Below, piece after piece: positions 929 to 15,316 of a stretch of DNA of 32,717 nucleotides. Source of the stretch: Aquificales bacterium (lineage in GTDB: Bacteria; Aquificota; Aquificia; Aquificales; QOAS01). The number at the start of each line of letters is the position of its first letter. The stretch's first letter is position 1. The stretch covers positions 1-32,717 of the forward strand of contig JALWDU010000063.1 in NCBI GenBank assembly GCA_027036735.1. The letters are read 5' to 3'. A program made the position numbers and the translations under genes. A model generated the notes under the pieces. That model searched no databases and had not been told where the DNA came from. It saw only the letters and a list, made by a program, of their open reading frames with translations.

Positions 929-2953
929 ATGAAAAAAACCCTCGCCCTCTTTACCCTTCTCTCGCTAACCTCGGCGGGTTTCGGAAACCTTCTTTTTTTA
1001 AACGCCACCGAGGTGAAAGTGTTATCCGACAACCAACGGGTGGAGGCTTTGGGAAATGTAAAAGCCCTTTACGGGAACTACAGACTAAAAGCCGACCGTT
1101 TGGTGTATTTGAGGGATAAGGGTCTCCTAATAGCGGAGGGAAATGTATTTTTAACCGACGGCAAAGGTGTTTTCCTCCGCGCGAAGAAACTCGTTTACTA
1201 CCTTTCAGAAAGGGTTATCGAATTGTTTAACGTAAGGGGAAAACTTAAGGGGAATTATATAAACTCTTCCTACGTTAGGATAAGGGGCGAAATCTACCTC
1301 TTCAAAGAGGCTTGCGCCACCAAGTGCGCCGACCGCTCGGCGGAGGTTTGCGCGAGGAAATTTGTATTCAAACGGCAAAAGGGCGAGGGTGTAGCCTATT
1401 CGGCAACGGTAAAGGTTGAGGGTATCCCGATATTCTACACCCCCTATTACGCCTTTCAGACCAAACGGAAAACCGGTTTTTTAGCCCCCAAGATGGGGGT
1501 TGACAACTACGGCGATTTCGTCTACCGCCAACCCTTCTTTTGGGCAATCTCCCCCTATTCCGACCTAACCTTTACCGGCGATTACAGGGCGGGGGGACTC
1601 TACGGGGGGGGTTTGCAGTTTAGGAAGTATTTCGCCCGAGATAGCTATTTGGAAACGTTAAATCAGCTCTACTACGACGACGCCTATCCCAGCAAGTGGT
1701 GGGAGGGAAGGGACTACCACCGCCGCCTTAGATACCTGCTCTTCGGCAAGGGGTATAAGGGAAATCTCACCTTCCAATGGGAGTTGCCCTCCGACATAGA
1801 CTACTTCTACGACATATTTTTCTTCGACAAAGACCAACACTACAAGAGTTTTGCGAAAAGCTTTATCCAATACACCTTAAACGGGGAGAGGTTTAACCTA
1901 AACCTAAAAGGGGAGTATTTTTACAACCTCACCACGAGAGACCGTTCGAAAGACCTCGCAACCCTACCCGATATCTATCTCTATCTGAAACCCCAACCTT
2001 TGGGAGAGGGATTTACCTACGACCTGACGACGGAACTCACAAACTTCTACACCGACAATAAGAGTTTTTGGAGGTATAGACTCGTTCCGAAACTGGGATG
2101 GAAACACACATTTGGAACCACTCCGGTGGCTTTTTACTTTAAACCCTACTACATCTATTACTCCTCCACCCGTTACGGAAACCGAAAGAACGTTCTCGGT
2201 TACAGCCTAACCGCAAAGAGTCTCCTATACAACTTCAACCTCGTGAGGACCGAGAGTTGGAATCTCTTCTCCAGTTGGGAGTGGGTTTACAAATTCCACC
2301 CCTTTGAGGAAAAGAATCACCCACCCTTTGACACCTTCGACGAACTTTCGAAACAAAATCTTCTAACCTTGAGGGGTGTAAATTCCCTAAACTACGGCGG
2401 GAAAGAGGTTGCAAACTTTATCGTGGAACAGCCCTACAACTTTTACAGCGGCTACAACTTCCCCACCGACGGAGCCTACATAAACGGCAAACTGCTACCC
2501 CTAAAGCTTTACTACAACATAAACCCCCCTTCGGGGGATATTTCCTTGGGCGGGCAAATCTACTACGACCACCACCTGTCGGAAATCGTTTACAACACCG
2601 CTTGGATAAATTGGACAGCCGTAAAAACCCTAACGGCGAAGTTAGACCTAGACTTTTCCTATACCCTAAGTAAAGACCACCTCGGGGAGAAGCAAACCGA
2701 CCAATACTCCTACGGGTTGAAACTCAACTGGAAAAACCTTCGGGTGGAGGGGAAAAATTACTACGACTCCCTAAGGGGTAAAAACATTAGAAACTCCCTA
2801 AGTGTGGACTACAACCGAAACTGTTGGAGTATAGGTCTCCGCTATCAAAGGGAGTACAACTTCGACAACAACCGTTATGACTGGAACCTCCTATTGGTCT
2901 TCAACTTCTTTTCCAACCCCTTCAACTTCCTAGTAGCCGGAGGTAGAAAATGA
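929..2953 (+). CDS. lptD: LPS assembly outer-membrane protein LptD
   Basis: Outer-membrane beta-barrel that, with lipoprotein LptE, inserts lipopolysaccharide into the outer leaflet. The 674-aa product starts with a signal peptide (MKKTLALFTLL..., likely cleaved near residue 20). A periplasmic OstA/LptA-like beta-jellyroll follows (roughly 25-165: NATEVKVLSDN..., ALGNVKALYG, IAEGNVFLTDG), then a long barrel rich in alternating aromatic residues. Three cysteines (CATKC...C, about residues 128-139) and one near the C-terminus (NRNCWS, about 631) could form the inter-domain disulfides known for LptD, although the usual C-terminal Cys-Cys pair is a single Cys here. The barrel ends without a canonical terminal Phe. 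No Shine-Dalgarno sequence precedes the ATG; a GATAAT box lies 14 bases upstream. It overlaps the next gene by ATGA. Its presence shows the organism has LPS. Confidence 0.93.
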   Translation: MKKTLALFTLLSLTSAGFGNLLFLNATEVKVLSDNQRVEALGNVKALYGNYRLKADRLVYLRDKGLLIAEGNVFLTDGKGVFLRAKKLVYYLSERVIELFNVRGKLKGNYINSSYVRIRGEIYLFKEACATKCADRSAEVCARKFVFKRQKGEGVAYSATVKVEGIPIFYTPYYAFQTKRKTGFLAPKMGVDNYGDFVYRQPFFWAISPYSDLTFTGDYRAGGLYGGGLQFRKYFARDSYLETLNQLYYDDAYPSKWWEGRDYHRRLRYLLFGKGYKGNLTFQWELPSDIDYFYDIFFFDKDQHYKSFAKSFIQYTLNGERFNLNLKGEYFYNLTTRDRSKDLATLPDIYLYLKPQPLGEGFTYDLTTELTNFYTDNKSFWRYRLVPKLGWKHTFGTTPVAFYFKPYYIYYSSTRYGNRKNVLGYSLTAKSLLYNFNLVRTESWNLFSSWEWVYKFHPFEEKNHPPFDTFDELSKQNLLTLRGVNSLNYGGKEVANFIVEQPYNFYSGYNFPTDGAYINGKLLPLKLYYNINPPSGDISLGGQIYYDHHLSEIVYNTAWINWTAVKTLTAKLDLDFSYTLSKDHLGEKQTDQYSYGLKLNWKNLRVEGKNYYDSLRGKNIRNSLSVDYNRNCWSIGLRYQREYNFDNNRYDWNLLLVFNFFSNPFNFLVAGGRK

Positions 2954-6219: not shown

Positions 6220-6359
6220 TTTCTCCTACCTCCTATTGTGGTTTTTACAAAGTTCTCCTTATTTTACGGAACCCCACGCCAGAAAGCCTTCCATCTGTGA
6301 TAGAGAGATAAATTGCATCCTATAGGTTTTAAAATCCCTATCTAAAGGAGTTTGGAACT

Positions 6360-7601
6360 GTGACTAAAGCCGATAAAATCAAACAATCCATTAAACTAAC
6401 CAAAGAAAAAAGGAAGCTCCAAACTCCCAAAGTCTTCCAGCTCAAACTCCAAACCCTCTCTAAATCCGATATAAAAACCTTAGAAAGACTTTTCTTAGAG
6501 GCTAAATGGTTCTATAATTACCTTATAGCCGATATTGATAGCCGATTAAACAAAAAATCTGAAAAACTTAAAGTAGTCGAAATTAAAACTCCTAACAGCT
6601 TTGAAAAAAGAGAACTGAATCTCTTGGGTTCTCAAGTCAAGCAAGGCATTATTGAAAGGATTAAAACCAGCCTTAAAGCTTTGAAAAAACTAAAGGAACA
6701 AGGCTATAAAGTAGGAAAACTCCAATTTAAATCCGATTTTAAAAGCATTCCCCTAAAGCAATTTAGAATCACCTACAAAATAGACTTCAAAAGAAACAGA
6801 ATTAAAGTTCAAGGCATTAGAAAGTGGTTTAGAGTTTTGGGATTGCACCAGATACCTAAAAATTCGGAGATTGCAAACGCTTTTCTGGTTAAAAAGCCTT
6901 CAGGCTTCTATCTATATGTGGTTTGCTATCTTTGGAGAGAGGAAGTTTTAAGGGAAATAAAACAAAAACAGACTTCAATTCCTGTAGGTATTAAATACCA
7001 GCTAACTTTAACAACGGGGGAAAGTTTTAAGTGGTACATTCCCGAAACGAAGAGGCTTAAAAGGTTGCAGAAGATTTTGGCAAGGAAAAGAAAAGGGAGT
7101 AAAAACTATCAAAAGATTAAAAGGTTAATACAAAAGGAATGGGAATATATTAAGAACAAAAGAAAAGACATTCAAAACAAGGTAATAAGCTACTTAAAGA
7201 AGTTTCCGTTTATAGCGGTTCAAAGAGATGACATAAAAGGTTGGCATGAAGGATTGTTTGGGAAAGAAGTTCAAAACACGGGGATAGGGGGAATAACTGC
7301 AAGGCTGAAATACCTTGCGACCTTTATCCCTGTAGAATTTGTGCCGAAATATGAAGCAACAACACAAACTTGCTGTAGATGTGGTTTTAAGCAAAAAGTT
7401 GAATTAAACGAGAGAACTTATAAATGTCAAAAATGCGGTTTAGAGATAGATAGGGATTTAAATGGAGCGTGGAACATATTAAAGATTGGATTAAAGCAAT
7501 TGGCAAAGAAAAATAAGGTGCTGGCAGACCGCCTAAAGTCTGCCCTACCCGTGGACTGCGGGGAAGTAACGCCCGTGGAGTGGGGGTTATCCCCACGATG
7601 A
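6360..7601 (+). CDS. tnpB: TnpB-family protein with defective RuvC site (probably nuclease-dead)
   Basis: A 413-aa TnpB-type protein, in active relatives an RNA-guided endonuclease of the IS200/IS605 family and ancestor of Cas12. The start is GTG with AAAGGAG nine bases before it. Seen: basic N-terminal region, RuvC fold, a four-Cys zinc ribbon (CCRCGF...CQKCG) and the last RuvC motif (EIDRDLNGAWN) with its Asp. Where relatives have GID-x-GI-K, this protein reads VGIKYQLTLTTGE. The simplest alignment is an in-frame loss of four residues including the first catalytic Asp, between two copies of Gly-Ile. The second motif reads VQRDDIKGW where relatives have QDENIKGW, i.e. Glu to Asp. The frame is otherwise intact and the tail (VDCGEVTPVEWG) is the usual one overlapping the omega-RNA. 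It may be a decayed nuclease or a TldR-like repressor. Confidence 0.85.
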   Translation: MTKADKIKQSIKLTKEKRKLQTPKVFQLKLQTLSKSDIKTLERLFLEAKWFYNYLIADIDSRLNKKSEKLKVVEIKTPNSFEKRELNLLGSQVKQGIIERIKTSLKALKKLKEQGYKVGKLQFKSDFKSIPLKQFRITYKIDFKRNRIKVQGIRKWFRVLGLHQIPKNSEIANAFLVKKPSGFYLYVVCYLWREEVLREIKQKQTSIPVGIKYQLTLTTGESFKWYIPETKRLKRLQKILARKRKGSKNYQKIKRLIQKEWEYIKNKRKDIQNKVISYLKKFPFIAVQRDDIKGWHEGLFGKEVQNTGIGGITARLKYLATFIPVEFVPKYEATTQTCCRCGFKQKVELNERTYKCQKCGLEIDRDLNGAWNILKIGLKQLAKKNKVLADRLKSALPVDCGEVTPVEWGLSPR

Positions 7602-7640
7602 AGCGGGAAGCTCCTCATCTCTGATGGGGGAGGAGGTCAC
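7500..7640 (+). ncRNA. Omega-RNA (TnpB guide scaffold), guide begins at 7641
   Basis: The end of tnpB and the right end of the element form the expected string of hairpins. GGCAGAC pairs with GTCTGCC (7523-7544), GTGGGG pairs with CCCCAC (7580-7596), and a terminal hairpin CTCCTCATC/GATGGGGGAG lies at 7611-7632, ending in GGAGGTCAC. By analogy with known omega-RNAs the next 16-20 bases (7641 onward, GGACGTCTCCGGCGCA) would be the guide. The 5' boundary is approximate. Conservation of all three hairpins alongside a broken RuvC site is notable. Confidence 0.6.
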
Positions 7641-7695
7641 GGACGTCTCCGGCGCAAAACCCAACGGAAACTTTCAAAAAATTCACCTACAAAAG

Positions 7696-10793: not shown

Positions 10794-12071
10794 ATGCGAA
10801 GACTGCTACTAAGTTCTTTCATCCTCGCCCTATTAGTCGTTGGCGGAGCTCTGTGGTACTTTTACGGAAATTTACGGGTAAATATCGATATCCCGCCTTC
10901 GGCGGACAAATTGGCGGCGGAGGAAAATATACACCTCCAAATTAAGCCCAACAAACGCCCACCCTTGGGAAAATTGGAAATACTTCTGGTTCAGGGAAAT
11001 AAAACCCTTACCCTCTACAAGGGCAATATAAAGTGCGCCGATACCGACATATTGGTTAAAACCAAAGAGGCGGGTTTTAAAAATGGAGAGGCTCAAATAG
11101 TTGCCTACCTCGAACTTCCCTTTAAAAGGGAAAAAATCTTCCAAAAAGAGGTATACATCGACACAGTTCCTCCGACCATTTCGGTATTGGAAAAACCGCG
11201 CAGGCTGGTTATCGGTGAACCGGGAGTGGTTGCCGTAAAAACCTCCCCCGATACCGCCGATATATACGTTCAACTGGGAGAGGCAAAATTTAAACTGTTG
11301 TCTACGGAAAATGGAACGTATAAAACCGTAATAACGGCACCCCTATTTTTACTGAAATCACCCGCGAACTATTTCATCGTCGCAACCGACGAAGCCGGTA
11401 ACACCGCAAAGGTCTACCTTCCAATAGCGATTAAACCCAAAAAGTTTCGCACCGTAAAAATAGAATTGACGAAAGAAAAACTGGAAGAAATAGTTCTAAA
11501 GTATTTTTCTTCACCGGACAATCTTGTAGAAAAATTTACACAGATTAATACCCTCTTTAGGGCGGAAGATGAGGAATATATTCGCGAAATCTGCTCCAAT
11601 TCGGAAGCCCGATTGATGGCGGAAAAAGCCTTCCTTCAATTACCGGGAAGTGCCCCCACCGCCTTTTACGGCGACCACCGCTACTATTACTACAACGGAA
11701 AACTAATTGGAGAATCCGTTCACAAAGGGATAGACCTCGCCAAATACCGCCACGCCCCCGTTGTGGCGGCCAACAACGGCAGGGTAATTTTTACCGGAAG
11801 GCTGAAAATTTACGGTAACACCGTAATAATAGACCACGGTTTCGGAGTTTTTACCCTCTACGGACATCTAAACGACTTTACCGTCAGTGAAGGCGAATAC
11901 GTTAAAAAGGGTCAACTTATAGGACATACCGATACAACCGGCTTGGCGCTGGGAGACCACCTCCACTTCGGGGTTTTGATTTGGGGATATGCCGCCAACC
12001 CACTTTTCTTCTTCGACGGTTACTACCTCCACTATTACTTTTACAATCCCCTTAAGAAAACCTTTCCCTAA
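10794..12071 (+). CDS. Membrane-anchored M23 (LytM-type) peptidase
   Basis: About 425 aa: an uncleaved N-terminal anchor (MRRLLLSSFILALLVVGGALWYF), a periplasmic region with Ig/beta-sandwich character (about 30-220), a helical linker (225-285) and a C-terminal M23 domain. The zinc and catalytic residues are complete (numbered from a TTG two codons upstream): HKGIDLA (His312, Asp316), YGH at 358-360, and HLHFG (His391, His393). Such enzymes cut peptide cross-links of peptidoglycan, in elongation or separation; the organism's specific role is unknown. Start choice: ATG at 10794 is preferred over TTG at 10788. Its 3' end overlaps the convergent coiled-coil gene by 20 bp. Confidence 0.9.
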   Translation: MRRLLLSSFILALLVVGGALWYFYGNLRVNIDIPPSADKLAAEENIHLQIKPNKRPPLGKLEILLVQGNKTLTLYKGNIKCADTDILVKTKEAGFKNGEAQIVAYLELPFKREKIFQKEVYIDTVPPTISVLEKPRRLVIGEPGVVAVKTSPDTADIYVQLGEAKFKLLSTENGTYKTVITAPLFLLKSPANYFIVATDEAGNTAKVYLPIAIKPKKFRTVKIELTKEKLEEIVLKYFSSPDNLVEKFTQINTLFRAEDEEYIREICSNSEARLMAEKAFLQLPGSAPTAFYGDHRYYYYNGKLIGESVHKGIDLAKYRHAPVVAANNGRVIFTGRLKIYGNTVIIDHGFGVFTLYGHLNDFTVSEGEYVKKGQLIGHTDTTGLALGDHLHFGVLIWGYAANPLFFFDGYYLHYYFYNPLKKTFP

Positions 12072-13284
12072 TAAAACGGGCTTTGGTCTTTTCGTCCTCC
12101 CCCTCCAGCACACCCTCTATTACAAACTTCCCATCTCTGACCGTAAAGTAGACCCTCCCACCGGAAAACCTATCTTTAAAAACTACCCGGTTTGGACTTT
12201 CCAAACTTTCAAACTTCGCGGTAGACGGCTCCATCTTATCCAACTTTTTTAGATATTTAAGAAAACTCTCCTTAACGGTTTCGGACAAACTTTCAAAGTC
12301 CGCCAAAGCCCGGGGGGTAAACTCAACCCTTTCCAATAAAAGGTTTAAGTAGTCCACTATACCCCTATCGAGGAGAGTTTCCAGTTCCTTTATACGTTTC
12401 ATTCTTTCCTCCGCAACACCTTTGAGCGTTTCGAACTTACTCTTTAGTTTGTTTAATTCCTCTTCCACACTCTCTTTTTCGGTTTCGAGTTTTATCTTTT
12501 CCTCCTCGAGGTTTTTGAAATCCTCCTCCAGTCGCGCCAATCGTTTTATCAGTTTTTTTCGCTCCTTACGAAGTCTCCTAAGTTCTTCCCTACTCTTTTG
12601 GGGAATATTATCATCCGCAGATTCTTCTAGCAGCTGCCACAATTCACGATTGTTTTTTTGTAGATTTGCTATTTTTTCTGTGAGTTCCTCTATTTGCTTT
12701 CTAGACTTTGCCAATTCCTCCTCTTTCTGTTCCAGTAAACGTTTCAATTTTTCCGAGTGAGTGGAGTTATAAAGTTCCTCTATTTGTTTTTTTTCCGTTT
12801 CAAGAAGTCTATAGTTTTCCTCTAATTGCAACAATTGTTCTTTATAAAAAGTCAATTTTTCATTTAAAAGATTTACCTTACGCTTCAAATTTTCCATCAG
12901 CTGTTTTTGTTTTTCCCTTTCAAATTCCTCCGGGGATTTAAAAAGGAACAAACTTAAATATGTTAAAAGTGTGGGTATTAACACTCTGGGTATAACCCAC
13001 GGGTCTTTTAAAACCAATGCCAAACCTATTATTTGAAAAGTTACAAAATAGGCAAAAACTAGTAAGTTTTTTCTTCTCTCCCCCAACAACCAGGATAGAA
13101 AGAGGAACCCCGCAAAGGAGTATAAAAACAGCGCTTCCAGTAGACATTTGGGATATACCGGTGTAGAAAGGTGTACTTCTACGTAATGAAGCCCGATATA
13201 AAAGAAAACTATAAGGACTAAAGCTTTTATAACTTCCAAATATGGATAGTATTTAGTTTTTATGTTTCCGAGAAAGTTCATCAT
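12052..13284 (-). CDS. Membrane coiled-coil protein with RelE/ParE-like C-terminal domain
   Basis: A 410-aa protein not recognised as a named family. From the N-terminus: about four hydrophobic helices (residues about 17-35, 46-66, 72-90, 96-114), a very long charged coiled coil (about 118-320, heptad-like Glu/Lys/Leu) and a compact C-terminal domain (about 325-410). That last part, VEFTPRALADFESL through RFSGGRVYFTVRDGKFVIEGVL, follows the helix-helix-beta pattern of RelE/ParE-type toxins. This is a by-eye fold match, and the catalytic residues of RelE are not confirmed. The ATG at 13284 is chosen because AATAAT lies exactly six bases upstream, as in other leaderless genes here; upstream in-frame starts would run into the divergent stt3 gene. 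It could tether an RNA- or ribosome-binding domain to the membrane. Confidence 0.7.
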   Translation of the reverse strand: MMNFLGNIKTKYYPYLEVIKALVLIVFFYIGLHYVEVHLSTPVYPKCLLEALFLYSFAGFLFLSWLLGERRKNLLVFAYFVTFQIIGLALVLKDPWVIPRVLIPTLLTYLSLFLFKSPEEFEREKQKQLMENLKRKVNLLNEKLTFYKEQLLQLEENYRLLETEKKQIEELYNSTHSEKLKRLLEQKEEELAKSRKQIEELTEKIANLQKNNRELWQLLEESADDNIPQKSREELRRLRKERKKLIKRLARLEEDFKNLEEEKIKLETEKESVEEELNKLKSKFETLKGVAEERMKRIKELETLLDRGIVDYLNLLLERVEFTPRALADFESLSETVKESFLKYLKKLDKMEPSTAKFESLESPNRVVFKDRFSGGRVYFTVRDGKFVIEGVLEGEDEKTKARFIRERFS

Positions 13285-15316
13285 GCCTCTATTATTAATG
13301 TTTATCCCCATTGCCTTAGGTCTATTCGTTAGGTACAAACCTGTCTCCTATTGGCAACAACATCACGATTTGTTTTACGTAGAAAACAGACCTATTTTTA
13401 CCGGTTACGATTCCTATTTATACGCCCGCCTTGCCGAGGATTACAAATTGGGAATATTCCAGCCCAAAGGTATAGACCGCCTTAGATTTGTTCCCGATTA
13501 TATGCATTACTACCCCGTTATACCTTTCTACTCTTGGCTATTCGCAAAATTAAGCACCTTAACGGGGAAACATATAGAAAACCTATCGTTCTGGTTAATA
13601 CCTCTCTTTGCAGTATTATTCGTTATACCCTTTGTAATACTCTTTTACAGCGAAGCCTTACCCTTCACCGCCCTTTTGGGTGCTCTAATAGGCAGTATAT
13701 CCCTAATGTATTTGGTTCGAACAGCCTTAAATCGGTTAGATACCGATTCCATAATACTCTTTTCCTTCTTCTCAATACCTATGGCGGTTTATTTAGCCGC
13801 CAATTCTCAAAGCTTAAGAAAAAAATACCTCTATTTACTACTTTTAGCGGCTTTTGTAAATCTCTTTTATTGGGGTTATTACCATACGGGTCTAATTTTG
13901 GTTCTTTGGGTATTTTCAACGATTTATTGGCTTTATCCCCACATTTTAAAAGCCTTGAGGGAGAAAAAGTTTTATTTGGATAAACAAACTTTATTGGATT
14001 TAGGTTTATTAACCTTAGCCTTTAACCCCTATTTTCTTTTAAACGGTATCGGAAGCCTCCTATACCGAATCGAGGTTTACATATTGGGTTTTGGCAAACC
14101 CGAGGCGCATAATTTCCCCGATGTATCCATATCGATTTCGGAACTACAAAAGTTGAGTTTTTCTAAACTCGCACTTTTTACGGTTGGAAGTAAGGTTCTG
14201 TTGATTTTAGCCGTTATAGGTTTGGCTGTTTTTATAGCTTTAAGATTTAGAACTTTTCTACTGGTTCTACCCGTGTTTTTGGTCGGTCTTATAACGCTCA
14301 AAGGAGAATCCCGTTTCGCTATGTATCTGGCACCCGTTTTAGGAATAGGTTTTGGCTTTTTAATAGACCTCCTTTGGAACTTTATAAAGAGATACCTCCA
14401 CCTGGAGGGAATAAAAAAACATATAACCTTTGGAGGACTGGCTTTAATCCTTACCGCAATAGTGGTTTATGCCAACAAGGAGGACTTCAAGTATGTGCCA
14501 ATTCCCATAATGAATTCGCATGTAGCAAAAGCGTTTATCGAGCTCGGAAAACAGACACCTCCCAATGCTTGGATTTATACCTGGTGGGACTACGGCTATG
14601 CAATTCAGTATTACTCCCGAAGGGCTACTTTTCACGACGGCGGTTCCCAACACTCGCCCAAGACCTACTTTATCGCTTTGGGGTTTACAACACCTTCCCA
14701 AGAGAAGGCTTTCAATATTACGAAAACACTAACCGTTTGCGGAGCAAAATGTATAGATAAACTCCTAAAAGAGGGAAAATCTCCGCAAGAGATTAAGAGA
14801 CTCTTTGAAAGCGGCGCTTTAATACAGAACAAAACCTCAAACCATCCGGTGTATTGGGCTTTTACCAAAGACCTGCTGGGGAAATTTTATTGGATTTCCT
14901 ATTTCGGTAGTTGGAATTTTGCAACCCTTAAAGGGGAACACAGCTTTATAAGTCCCACCTATTGCGTATTGAAAGAAAAGGATTTATACCTCTGTAAATC
15001 GGGACCTTTCTTAGGATTATTGGATATTAGAAAATTTGTCCTTAAATTGTCCCCCAACAGAATACTTCCCGTAAAATACTTCGCCGTAAGAACTCCCGAC
15101 CAATTAAAGGTTTTTGAAAACAAATACTCCCCTTACGGGTTAGCTTTCGAAAAAGTTTACACCTACAAGAAAGGGCTTTATGCGTGGTATTTCACCACCA
15201 CCAAAGGTTTTGGAAGCAACTTTAACAAAATGTTCCCCCTTAGGGTGTGGGATAAAAAGTTTTTTGAAAAGGTGGAGGAGAAATTTCCCGATTATGTTTT
15301 TTATCTTGTCCGTTAA
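13262..15316 (+). CDS. Oligosaccharyltransferase STT3/PglB family
   Basis: A 684-aa integral membrane glycosyltransferase, the catalytic subunit for N-linked protein glycosylation at the periplasmic face. About 11-13 membrane helices occupy residues 8-400, followed by a periplasmic domain. Active-site elements in order: GYDSYLYAR (Asp50), RLDTDS (Asp160, Asp162), SISE in external loop 5 (Glu294, equivalent of the TIXE/SVSE glutamate), Arg351 (ESRFAMY) and the acceptor-recognition WWDYG (441-445). All are present, so activity is likely. Start is ATG 13262 or 13283; both lack a ribosome site and overlap or touch the start of the divergent coiled-coil gene. No pgl sugar-synthesis genes are in view. 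Confidence 0.9.
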   Translation: MFPRKFIMPLLLMFIPIALGLFVRYKPVSYWQQHHDLFYVENRPIFTGYDSYLYARLAEDYKLGIFQPKGIDRLRFVPDYMHYYPVIPFYSWLFAKLSTLTGKHIENLSFWLIPLFAVLFVIPFVILFYSEALPFTALLGALIGSISLMYLVRTALNRLDTDSIILFSFFSIPMAVYLAANSQSLRKKYLYLLLLAAFVNLFYWGYYHTGLILVLWVFSTIYWLYPHILKALREKKFYLDKQTLLDLGLLTLAFNPYFLLNGIGSLLYRIEVYILGFGKPEAHNFPDVSISISELQKLSFSKLALFTVGSKVLLILAVIGLAVFIALRFRTFLLVLPVFLVGLITLKGESRFAMYLAPVLGIGFGFLIDLLWNFIKRYLHLEGIKKHITFGGLALILTAIVVYANKEDFKYVPIPIMNSHVAKAFIELGKQTPPNAWIYTWWDYGYAIQYYSRRATFHDGGSQHSPKTYFIALGFTTPSQEKAFNITKTLTVCGAKCIDKLLKEGKSPQEIKRLFESGALIQNKTSNHPVYWAFTKDLLGKFYWISYFGSWNFATLKGEHSFISPTYCVLKEKDLYLCKSGPFLGLLDIRKFVLKLSPNRILPVKYFAVRTPDQLKVFENKYSPYGLAFEKVYTYKKGLYAWYFTTTKGFGSNFNKMFPLRVWDKKFFEKVEEKFPDYVFYLVR
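13285..13296 (-). promoter_or_regulatory. Leaderless-type -10 box of the coiled-coil gene
   Basis: Minus strand AATAAT (plus-strand 13291-13296) is followed by six bases (AGAGGC) and the ATG. It lies inside the coding part of stt3. Confidence 0.45.

What the first reader, a model, noticed from the sequence alone, without database searches (positions are those of the whole stretch)
6360..7601. TnpB with RuvC-I aspartate deleted and RuvC-II glutamate changed: candidate nuclease-dead TnpB
Relatives read GID-x-GI-K at RuvC-I. Here it is GIK, best explained by a 12-base in-frame deletion between repeated Gly-Ile codons (GGTATT remains). RuvC-II reads VQRDD instead of QDEN. Yet the 413-codon frame, zinc ribbon, RuvC-III Asp and omega-RNA hairpins are intact. 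Known TldR proteins are such nuclease-dead TnpBs turned into RNA-guided repressors.
Basis: partly seen in the sequence, partly recalled or inferred. Interest (0 to 1): 0.8.

Follow-up and report, generated by a model that had tools for sequence, protein, structure and literature searches.

The report
Recently broken copy of mobile TnpB
This is one copy of an ordinary mobile RNA-guided DNA-cutting gene (TnpB) that has lost a catalytic aspartate through a small, probably recent slippage deletion; two intact copies sit in the same genome and nothing shows it has become a gene regulator.

Summary
The 12-base in-frame deletion is real. Two sister TnpB copies in the same genome (92-93% identical) read VGIDLGIKYQ where the window reads VGIKYQ, and the aspartate is present in all 25 relatives aligned. 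The deletion removes one of two TAGGTAT repeats and the spacer, a replication-slippage signature. A structure model shows the RuvC-I strand shortened and its two partner strands lost, so the copy is very probably nuclease-dead.

The RuvC-II half of the finding is a misreading. VQRDD is shared by both intact sisters, and an Asp at that place is usual across this Aquificota lineage, including intact multi-copy families. It is not a mutation of this copy.

The repressor (TldR) reading is not supported. The element is a recent insertion: the sister species with 98-99% identical flanking proteins has an empty site. The deletion is in no other copy found, there is no partner gene or conserved locus, and the guide has no convincing target elsewhere in the genome. 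Other copies in the genus carry stops or are fragments. Substitutions on this copy's branch look purifying, which fits a very recent deletion or, less likely, retained function.

Best explanation: a freshly inactivated mobile TnpB copy. Low interest.

The parts
6268..7640 (+). Whole solo-TnpB element (IS200/IS605-type ends, no TnpA): left end directly after TTTTAC, right end finishing in GGTCAC
   Evidence: Similarity to L002 and L003 stops at these points; the element is absent in G006 and G001
6262..6267 (+). TTTTAC just outside the left end: presumed insertion target / target-adjacent motif (TTTAC is shared by all three copies)
   Evidence: comparison with the IS608 TTAC target (PMC8612924). 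TAM role inferred
6360..7601 (+). tnpB ORF, 413 codons, GTG start
6985..6991 (+). Scar of the 12-base deletion: one remaining TAGGTAT; the intact sisters have TAGGTATAGATTTAGGTAT (encoding Gly-Ile-Asp-Leu-Gly-Ile)
   Evidence: Nucleotide alignment
7218..7232 (+). RuvC-II VQRDD; acidic residue is Asp290 (codon 7227-7229); the place is Asp or Glu in all family copies
7353..7355 (+). Glu332, six residues before the first zinc-ribbon Cys; conserved in Aquificota copies; possible relocated RuvC-II glutamate
   Evidence: role inferred by analogy with Fanzor Ealt (PMC10711439)
7371..7436 (+). Zinc ribbon (Cys338, 341, 356, 359), intact
7455..7457 (+). RuvC-III Asp366 (DRDLN), intact
7515..7640 (+). 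Presumed omega-RNA scaffold and transposon right end; terminal hairpin one base shorter than relatives but still closable
   Evidence: extent of the RNA inferred
7641..7660 (+). Presumed guide (GGACGTCTCCGGCGCAAAAC), flanking host DNA
   Evidence: By analogy with TnpB right ends; no second match above chance in the genome

Best explanation
A solo-TnpB mobile element of IS200/IS605 type recently inserted after TTTTAC in the intergenic region between divergent bpsA-like and amt genes. Replication slippage between two TAGGTAT repeats removed 12 bases from its tnpB, taking out the RuvC-I aspartate and collapsing that beta-hairpin. The protein should no longer cut DNA and, because intact RuvC is needed for omega-RNA self-processing in a tested TnpB, probably no longer matures its own guide. 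The copy is a fresh loss-of-function allele on the way to decay, while two intact copies remain elsewhere in the genome. Shown: the deletion, intact sisters, empty site, lineage-wide RuvC-II state, decayed copies in the genus. Inferred: slippage as the cause, loss of cleavage, recency of the deletion, absence of a new function.
For: Exact 12-base deletion at 7-base repeats against two intact sister copies. Asp invariant in 25 relatives. Model: strand 209-215 becomes 209-212 and the strands at 218-221 and 226-228 are lost. Empty site in G006 (bpsA 99%, amt 98% aa; flanks 95-97% nt) and in G001. Synonymous divergence G000-G006 is about 0.09-0.11, less per lineage than this copy's own branch (about 0.15), so the insertion here is younger than much of the copy's history. 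The genus holds copies with a TAG at RuvC-II, with two TAA, and many fragments. No Y1 transposase found in the genome. D191A and E278A kill ISDra2 TnpB (PMC8612924); RuvC is required for omega-RNA processing by AmaTnpB (PMC10278001).
Against: The ORF is otherwise clean: no stop or frameshift, and dN/dS on its branch is about 0.10, as low as the intact sisters (0.14 and 0.15; Fisher p = 0.35). Neutral drift could cover at most roughly 2-15% of the branch, so the loss must be very recent or the dead protein is still constrained. Cleavage was not tested.
Confidence: 0.86

Rival explanations
1. Domesticated TldR-like RNA-guided repressor: a dead TnpB that uses its omega-RNA to bind and silence a host gene.
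For: Catalytic Asp lost while the rest of the ORF, zinc ribbon and right-end hairpins are kept; low dN/dS on the branch.
Against: Recent insertion at a site empty in the sister species; deletion seen in one copy only; guide has no match above chance (4 hits at 3 mismatches besides its own site against about 3 expected); no partner gene, only ordinary flanking genes.
Confidence: 0.04
2. The dead copy acts in trans on the two intact copies, for example by competing for omega-RNA or occupying donor joints, and so is retained.
For: Two intact copies with 92-93% identical proteins and closely similar right ends in one genome; low dN/dS.
Against: No direct evidence; the same data fit a deletion too recent to show decay.
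Confidence: 0.05
3. Assembly or sequencing error: collapse at the short repeat in a draft genome of 110 contigs.
For: Draft assembly; the deletion lies exactly at a short direct repeat.
Against: Two 7-base repeats 12 bases apart are easily spanned by short reads; the two other copies were assembled with the full sequence.
Confidence: 0.05

Closest known systems
IS200/IS605-type solo TnpB (NCBIfam guided_TnpB NF040570), e.g. ISDra2 TnpB (PDB 8H1J, 8EXA)
   Same: Domain order, RuvC-III DRDxN, zinc ribbon, right-end hairpin next to a guide, TTTAC/TCAC ends; best fold match 8h1j
   Different: RuvC-I Asp deleted in this copy; lineage-wide rearranged RuvC-II (Gln at the canonical Glu)
TldR (TnpB-like nuclease-dead repressors)
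   Same: RuvC catalytic residue lost while guide-RNA parts appear kept
   Different: No clade, no partner gene, no conserved locus, no guide target found; intact sisters in the same genome; recent insertion
TnpB clades with rearranged RuvC-II (RII-r3, RII-r5; PMC10278001) and the Fanzor-like alternative glutamate (Ealt; PMC10711439)
   Same: Canonical RuvC-II Glu absent, other acidic residues nearby; one RII-r5 member is active
   Different: Assignment to a named RII-r clade was not tested; the conserved Glu here is 6 positions before the Cys, whereas the search pattern in PMC10711439 puts Ealt 7 positions before

Membership tests
TnpB (IS200/IS605 accessory RNA-guided nuclease) | OrfB/TnpB domains and fold | tested here: met
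TnpB (IS200/IS605 accessory RNA-guided nuclease) | Transposon ends with the guide directly after the right end | tested here: met
   Shared ends in three copies and empty site in the sister species; guide use itself inferred
TnpB (IS200/IS605 accessory RNA-guided nuclease) | Complete RuvC catalytic site (active nuclease) | tested here: not met
   RuvC-I Asp deleted in this copy only; so a TnpB by descent, not an active nuclease
TldR | Inactivated RuvC | tested here: met
TldR | Inactive state conserved across a clade | tested here: not met
   All 25 aligned relatives keep the Asp
TldR | Stable association with non-transposon genes | tested here: not met
   Empty site in the sister species; flanks are ordinary bpsA-like and amt genes
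TldR | Guide matching a host promoter next to a TAM | tested here: not met
   No match above chance in the own genome, which is a draft
TldR | RNA-guided DNA binding and repression | not testable with these tools
   Needs an experiment
RuvC-II-rearranged TnpB clade (RII-r) | Canonical RuvC-II Glu replaced, acidic residue elsewhere | tested here: met
   Profile alignment puts Gln at the Glu of ISFba1 TnpB 8iaz; D/E two residues on
RuvC-II-rearranged TnpB clade (RII-r) | Phylogenetic placement in a named RII-r clade | not tested
   Reference sequences of the clades were not available

The most novel reading that the evidence does not exclude
The deleted TnpB is still made and selected as a non-cutting RNA-guided DNA-binding protein, either regulating a host gene or modulating its intact sister copies, which would be the birth of a TldR caught at its first step in an Aquificota bacterium.
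Probability: 0.05. Interest if true: 0.7.

Novelty: new member of a known kind. Interest (0 to 1): 0.17.

Why it matters
As a broken mobile-element copy it matters little. It usefully shows that a dead RuvC motif in one TnpB copy does not make a repressor: sister copies, the empty site and the lineage's own RuvC-II motif have to be checked first. The side observation, that this TnpB lineage lacks the canonical RuvC-II glutamate but keeps other conserved acidic residues, is a more general and testable point about RuvC-II rearrangement.

Tried and rejected
RuvC-II change as a second inactivating lesion: rejected, lineage-wide. Right-end hairpin damage as evidence of decay: I first read the one-base deletion as breaking the stem, but it still closes with 8 pairs including two G-U, so it is not used. 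Guide target search in the own genome: nothing above chance. Rfam scan of the window: no match. The primary TldR paper and the TnpB classification paper are not held. Viral contigs and plasmids gave only more distant relatives (below 60% identity), none bearing on the deletion.

Full report
Observation. The ORF at 6360-7601 encodes a 413-residue TnpB. A search of its own genome found two further full-length copies, L002 and L003, 93% and 92% identical in protein. Both read SIPVGIDLGIKYQLTLTTG where the window copy reads SIPVGIKYQLTLTTG. The DNA alignment shows a clean 12-base in-frame gap. In the sisters the DNA reads TAGGTATAGATTTAGGTAT; in the window one TAGGTAT remains (6985-6991). Loss of one repeat plus the spacer is the usual mark of replication slippage. 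In an alignment of 25 relatives the Asp is invariant, and no other Asp takes its place in the window copy.

RuvC-II. Both intact sisters have the same VQRDD. Across Aquificota the motif is Q-x-[D/E]-x-[I/V]: Asp in the genus and in a related family of the same class (QKDD, QKDS, QDDS, QNDN), Glu in another family (QDEQ, QEEQ), and Asp again in multi-copy Thermoplasmata elements (QNDP). One genome (G122) has four full-length copies without internal stops. So this is an old lineage state. A profile alignment to solved TnpBs puts the Gln of this motif at the canonical RuvC-II Glu (8iaz). The whole family therefore has a rearranged RuvC-II, a condition described before, with at least one active member among such clades (PMC10278001). 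Aquificota and Thermovirga copies also carry a conserved Glu six residues before the first zinc Cys, where QDEN/QDES relatives have Phe or Tyr. This may be a further relocation of the RuvC-II glutamate, near the Fanzor alternative position (PMC10711439). Thermoplasmata copies lack it, so this is a suggestion only.

Effect of the deletion. AlphaFold2 models give strands at 209-215, 218-221 and 226-228 in the intact L003 protein. In the window protein the first strand is 209-212 and the other two are not formed. The overall fold still matches TnpB structures (8h1j, E 5.6e-16). With D191A known to abolish cleavage by ISDra2 TnpB (PMC8612924), loss of cleavage is very likely. Intact RuvC was also needed for omega-RNA processing by AmaTnpB (PMC10278001).

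Setting. The element runs from 6268 to 7640, directly after TTTTAC and ending in GGTCAC, as in the sisters. It has no TnpA, and no Y1 transposase was found in the genome, although G003 and G006 in the genus have one. It lies between divergent bpsA-like and amt genes. In G006, whose flanking proteins are 99% and 98% identical, the two genes are about 200 bases apart with no element; G001 is also empty. The insertion is therefore recent. Synonymous divergence between G000 and G006 is 0.09-0.11, so about 0.05 on this lineage, while this copy's own branch is about 0.15.

Selection. The window copy has 37 unique synonymous and 14 unique non-synonymous changes, dN/dS about 0.10, against 0.14 and 0.15 for the sisters. 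There is no sign of relaxed selection. If the ORF has been neutral since the deletion, that period is at most about 2-15% of the branch, depending on the earlier dN/dS. Either the deletion is very recent or the dead protein is still constrained. The data cannot separate these two, but the recent insertion and the single-copy occurrence favour the first.

TldR test. Known TldRs arose by repeated RuvC inactivation and many show strong associations with non-transposon genes (PMC13418256). Neither a dead clade nor such an association is found here. The presumed guide with TTTAC has four matches at three mismatches besides its own site, against about three expected by chance. Copies in the same genus carry a TAG at RuvC-II, two TAA, or are fragments: ordinary decay is common in this family.

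Verdict. A recently inserted and very probably nuclease-dead copy of an ordinary mobile TnpB.

Noticed in passing
window 7218-7232 and 7353-7355; L044-L062, L090, L101: TnpB lineage with Gln at the canonical RuvC-II Glu, Asp (or Glu) two residues on, and a conserved Glu six residues before the first zinc Cys, where QDEN/QDES relatives have Phe/Tyr. Possible stepwise relocation of the RuvC-II glutamate.
   Followed up: partly
L026-L033 (Thermoplasmata archaeon TL1-3.bin39): Eight closely similar TnpB copies in one archaeal draft genome with RuvC-II QNDP and Thr at the alternative Glu place; many copies despite no Glu at either site.
   Followed up: no
L006 (G001:C133): TnpB relative with an in-frame TAG exactly at the RuvC-II Gln codon (V*EDD) and an otherwise near-complete frame.
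   Followed up: no
window 929-2953 and 12052-13338: Two long ORFs (674 and 428 aa) without any Pfam match at 1e-5.
   Followed up: no
window 13262-15316: ORF with STT3/PglB-type oligosaccharyltransferase domains, suggesting protein N-glycosylation in this bacterium.
   Followed up: no
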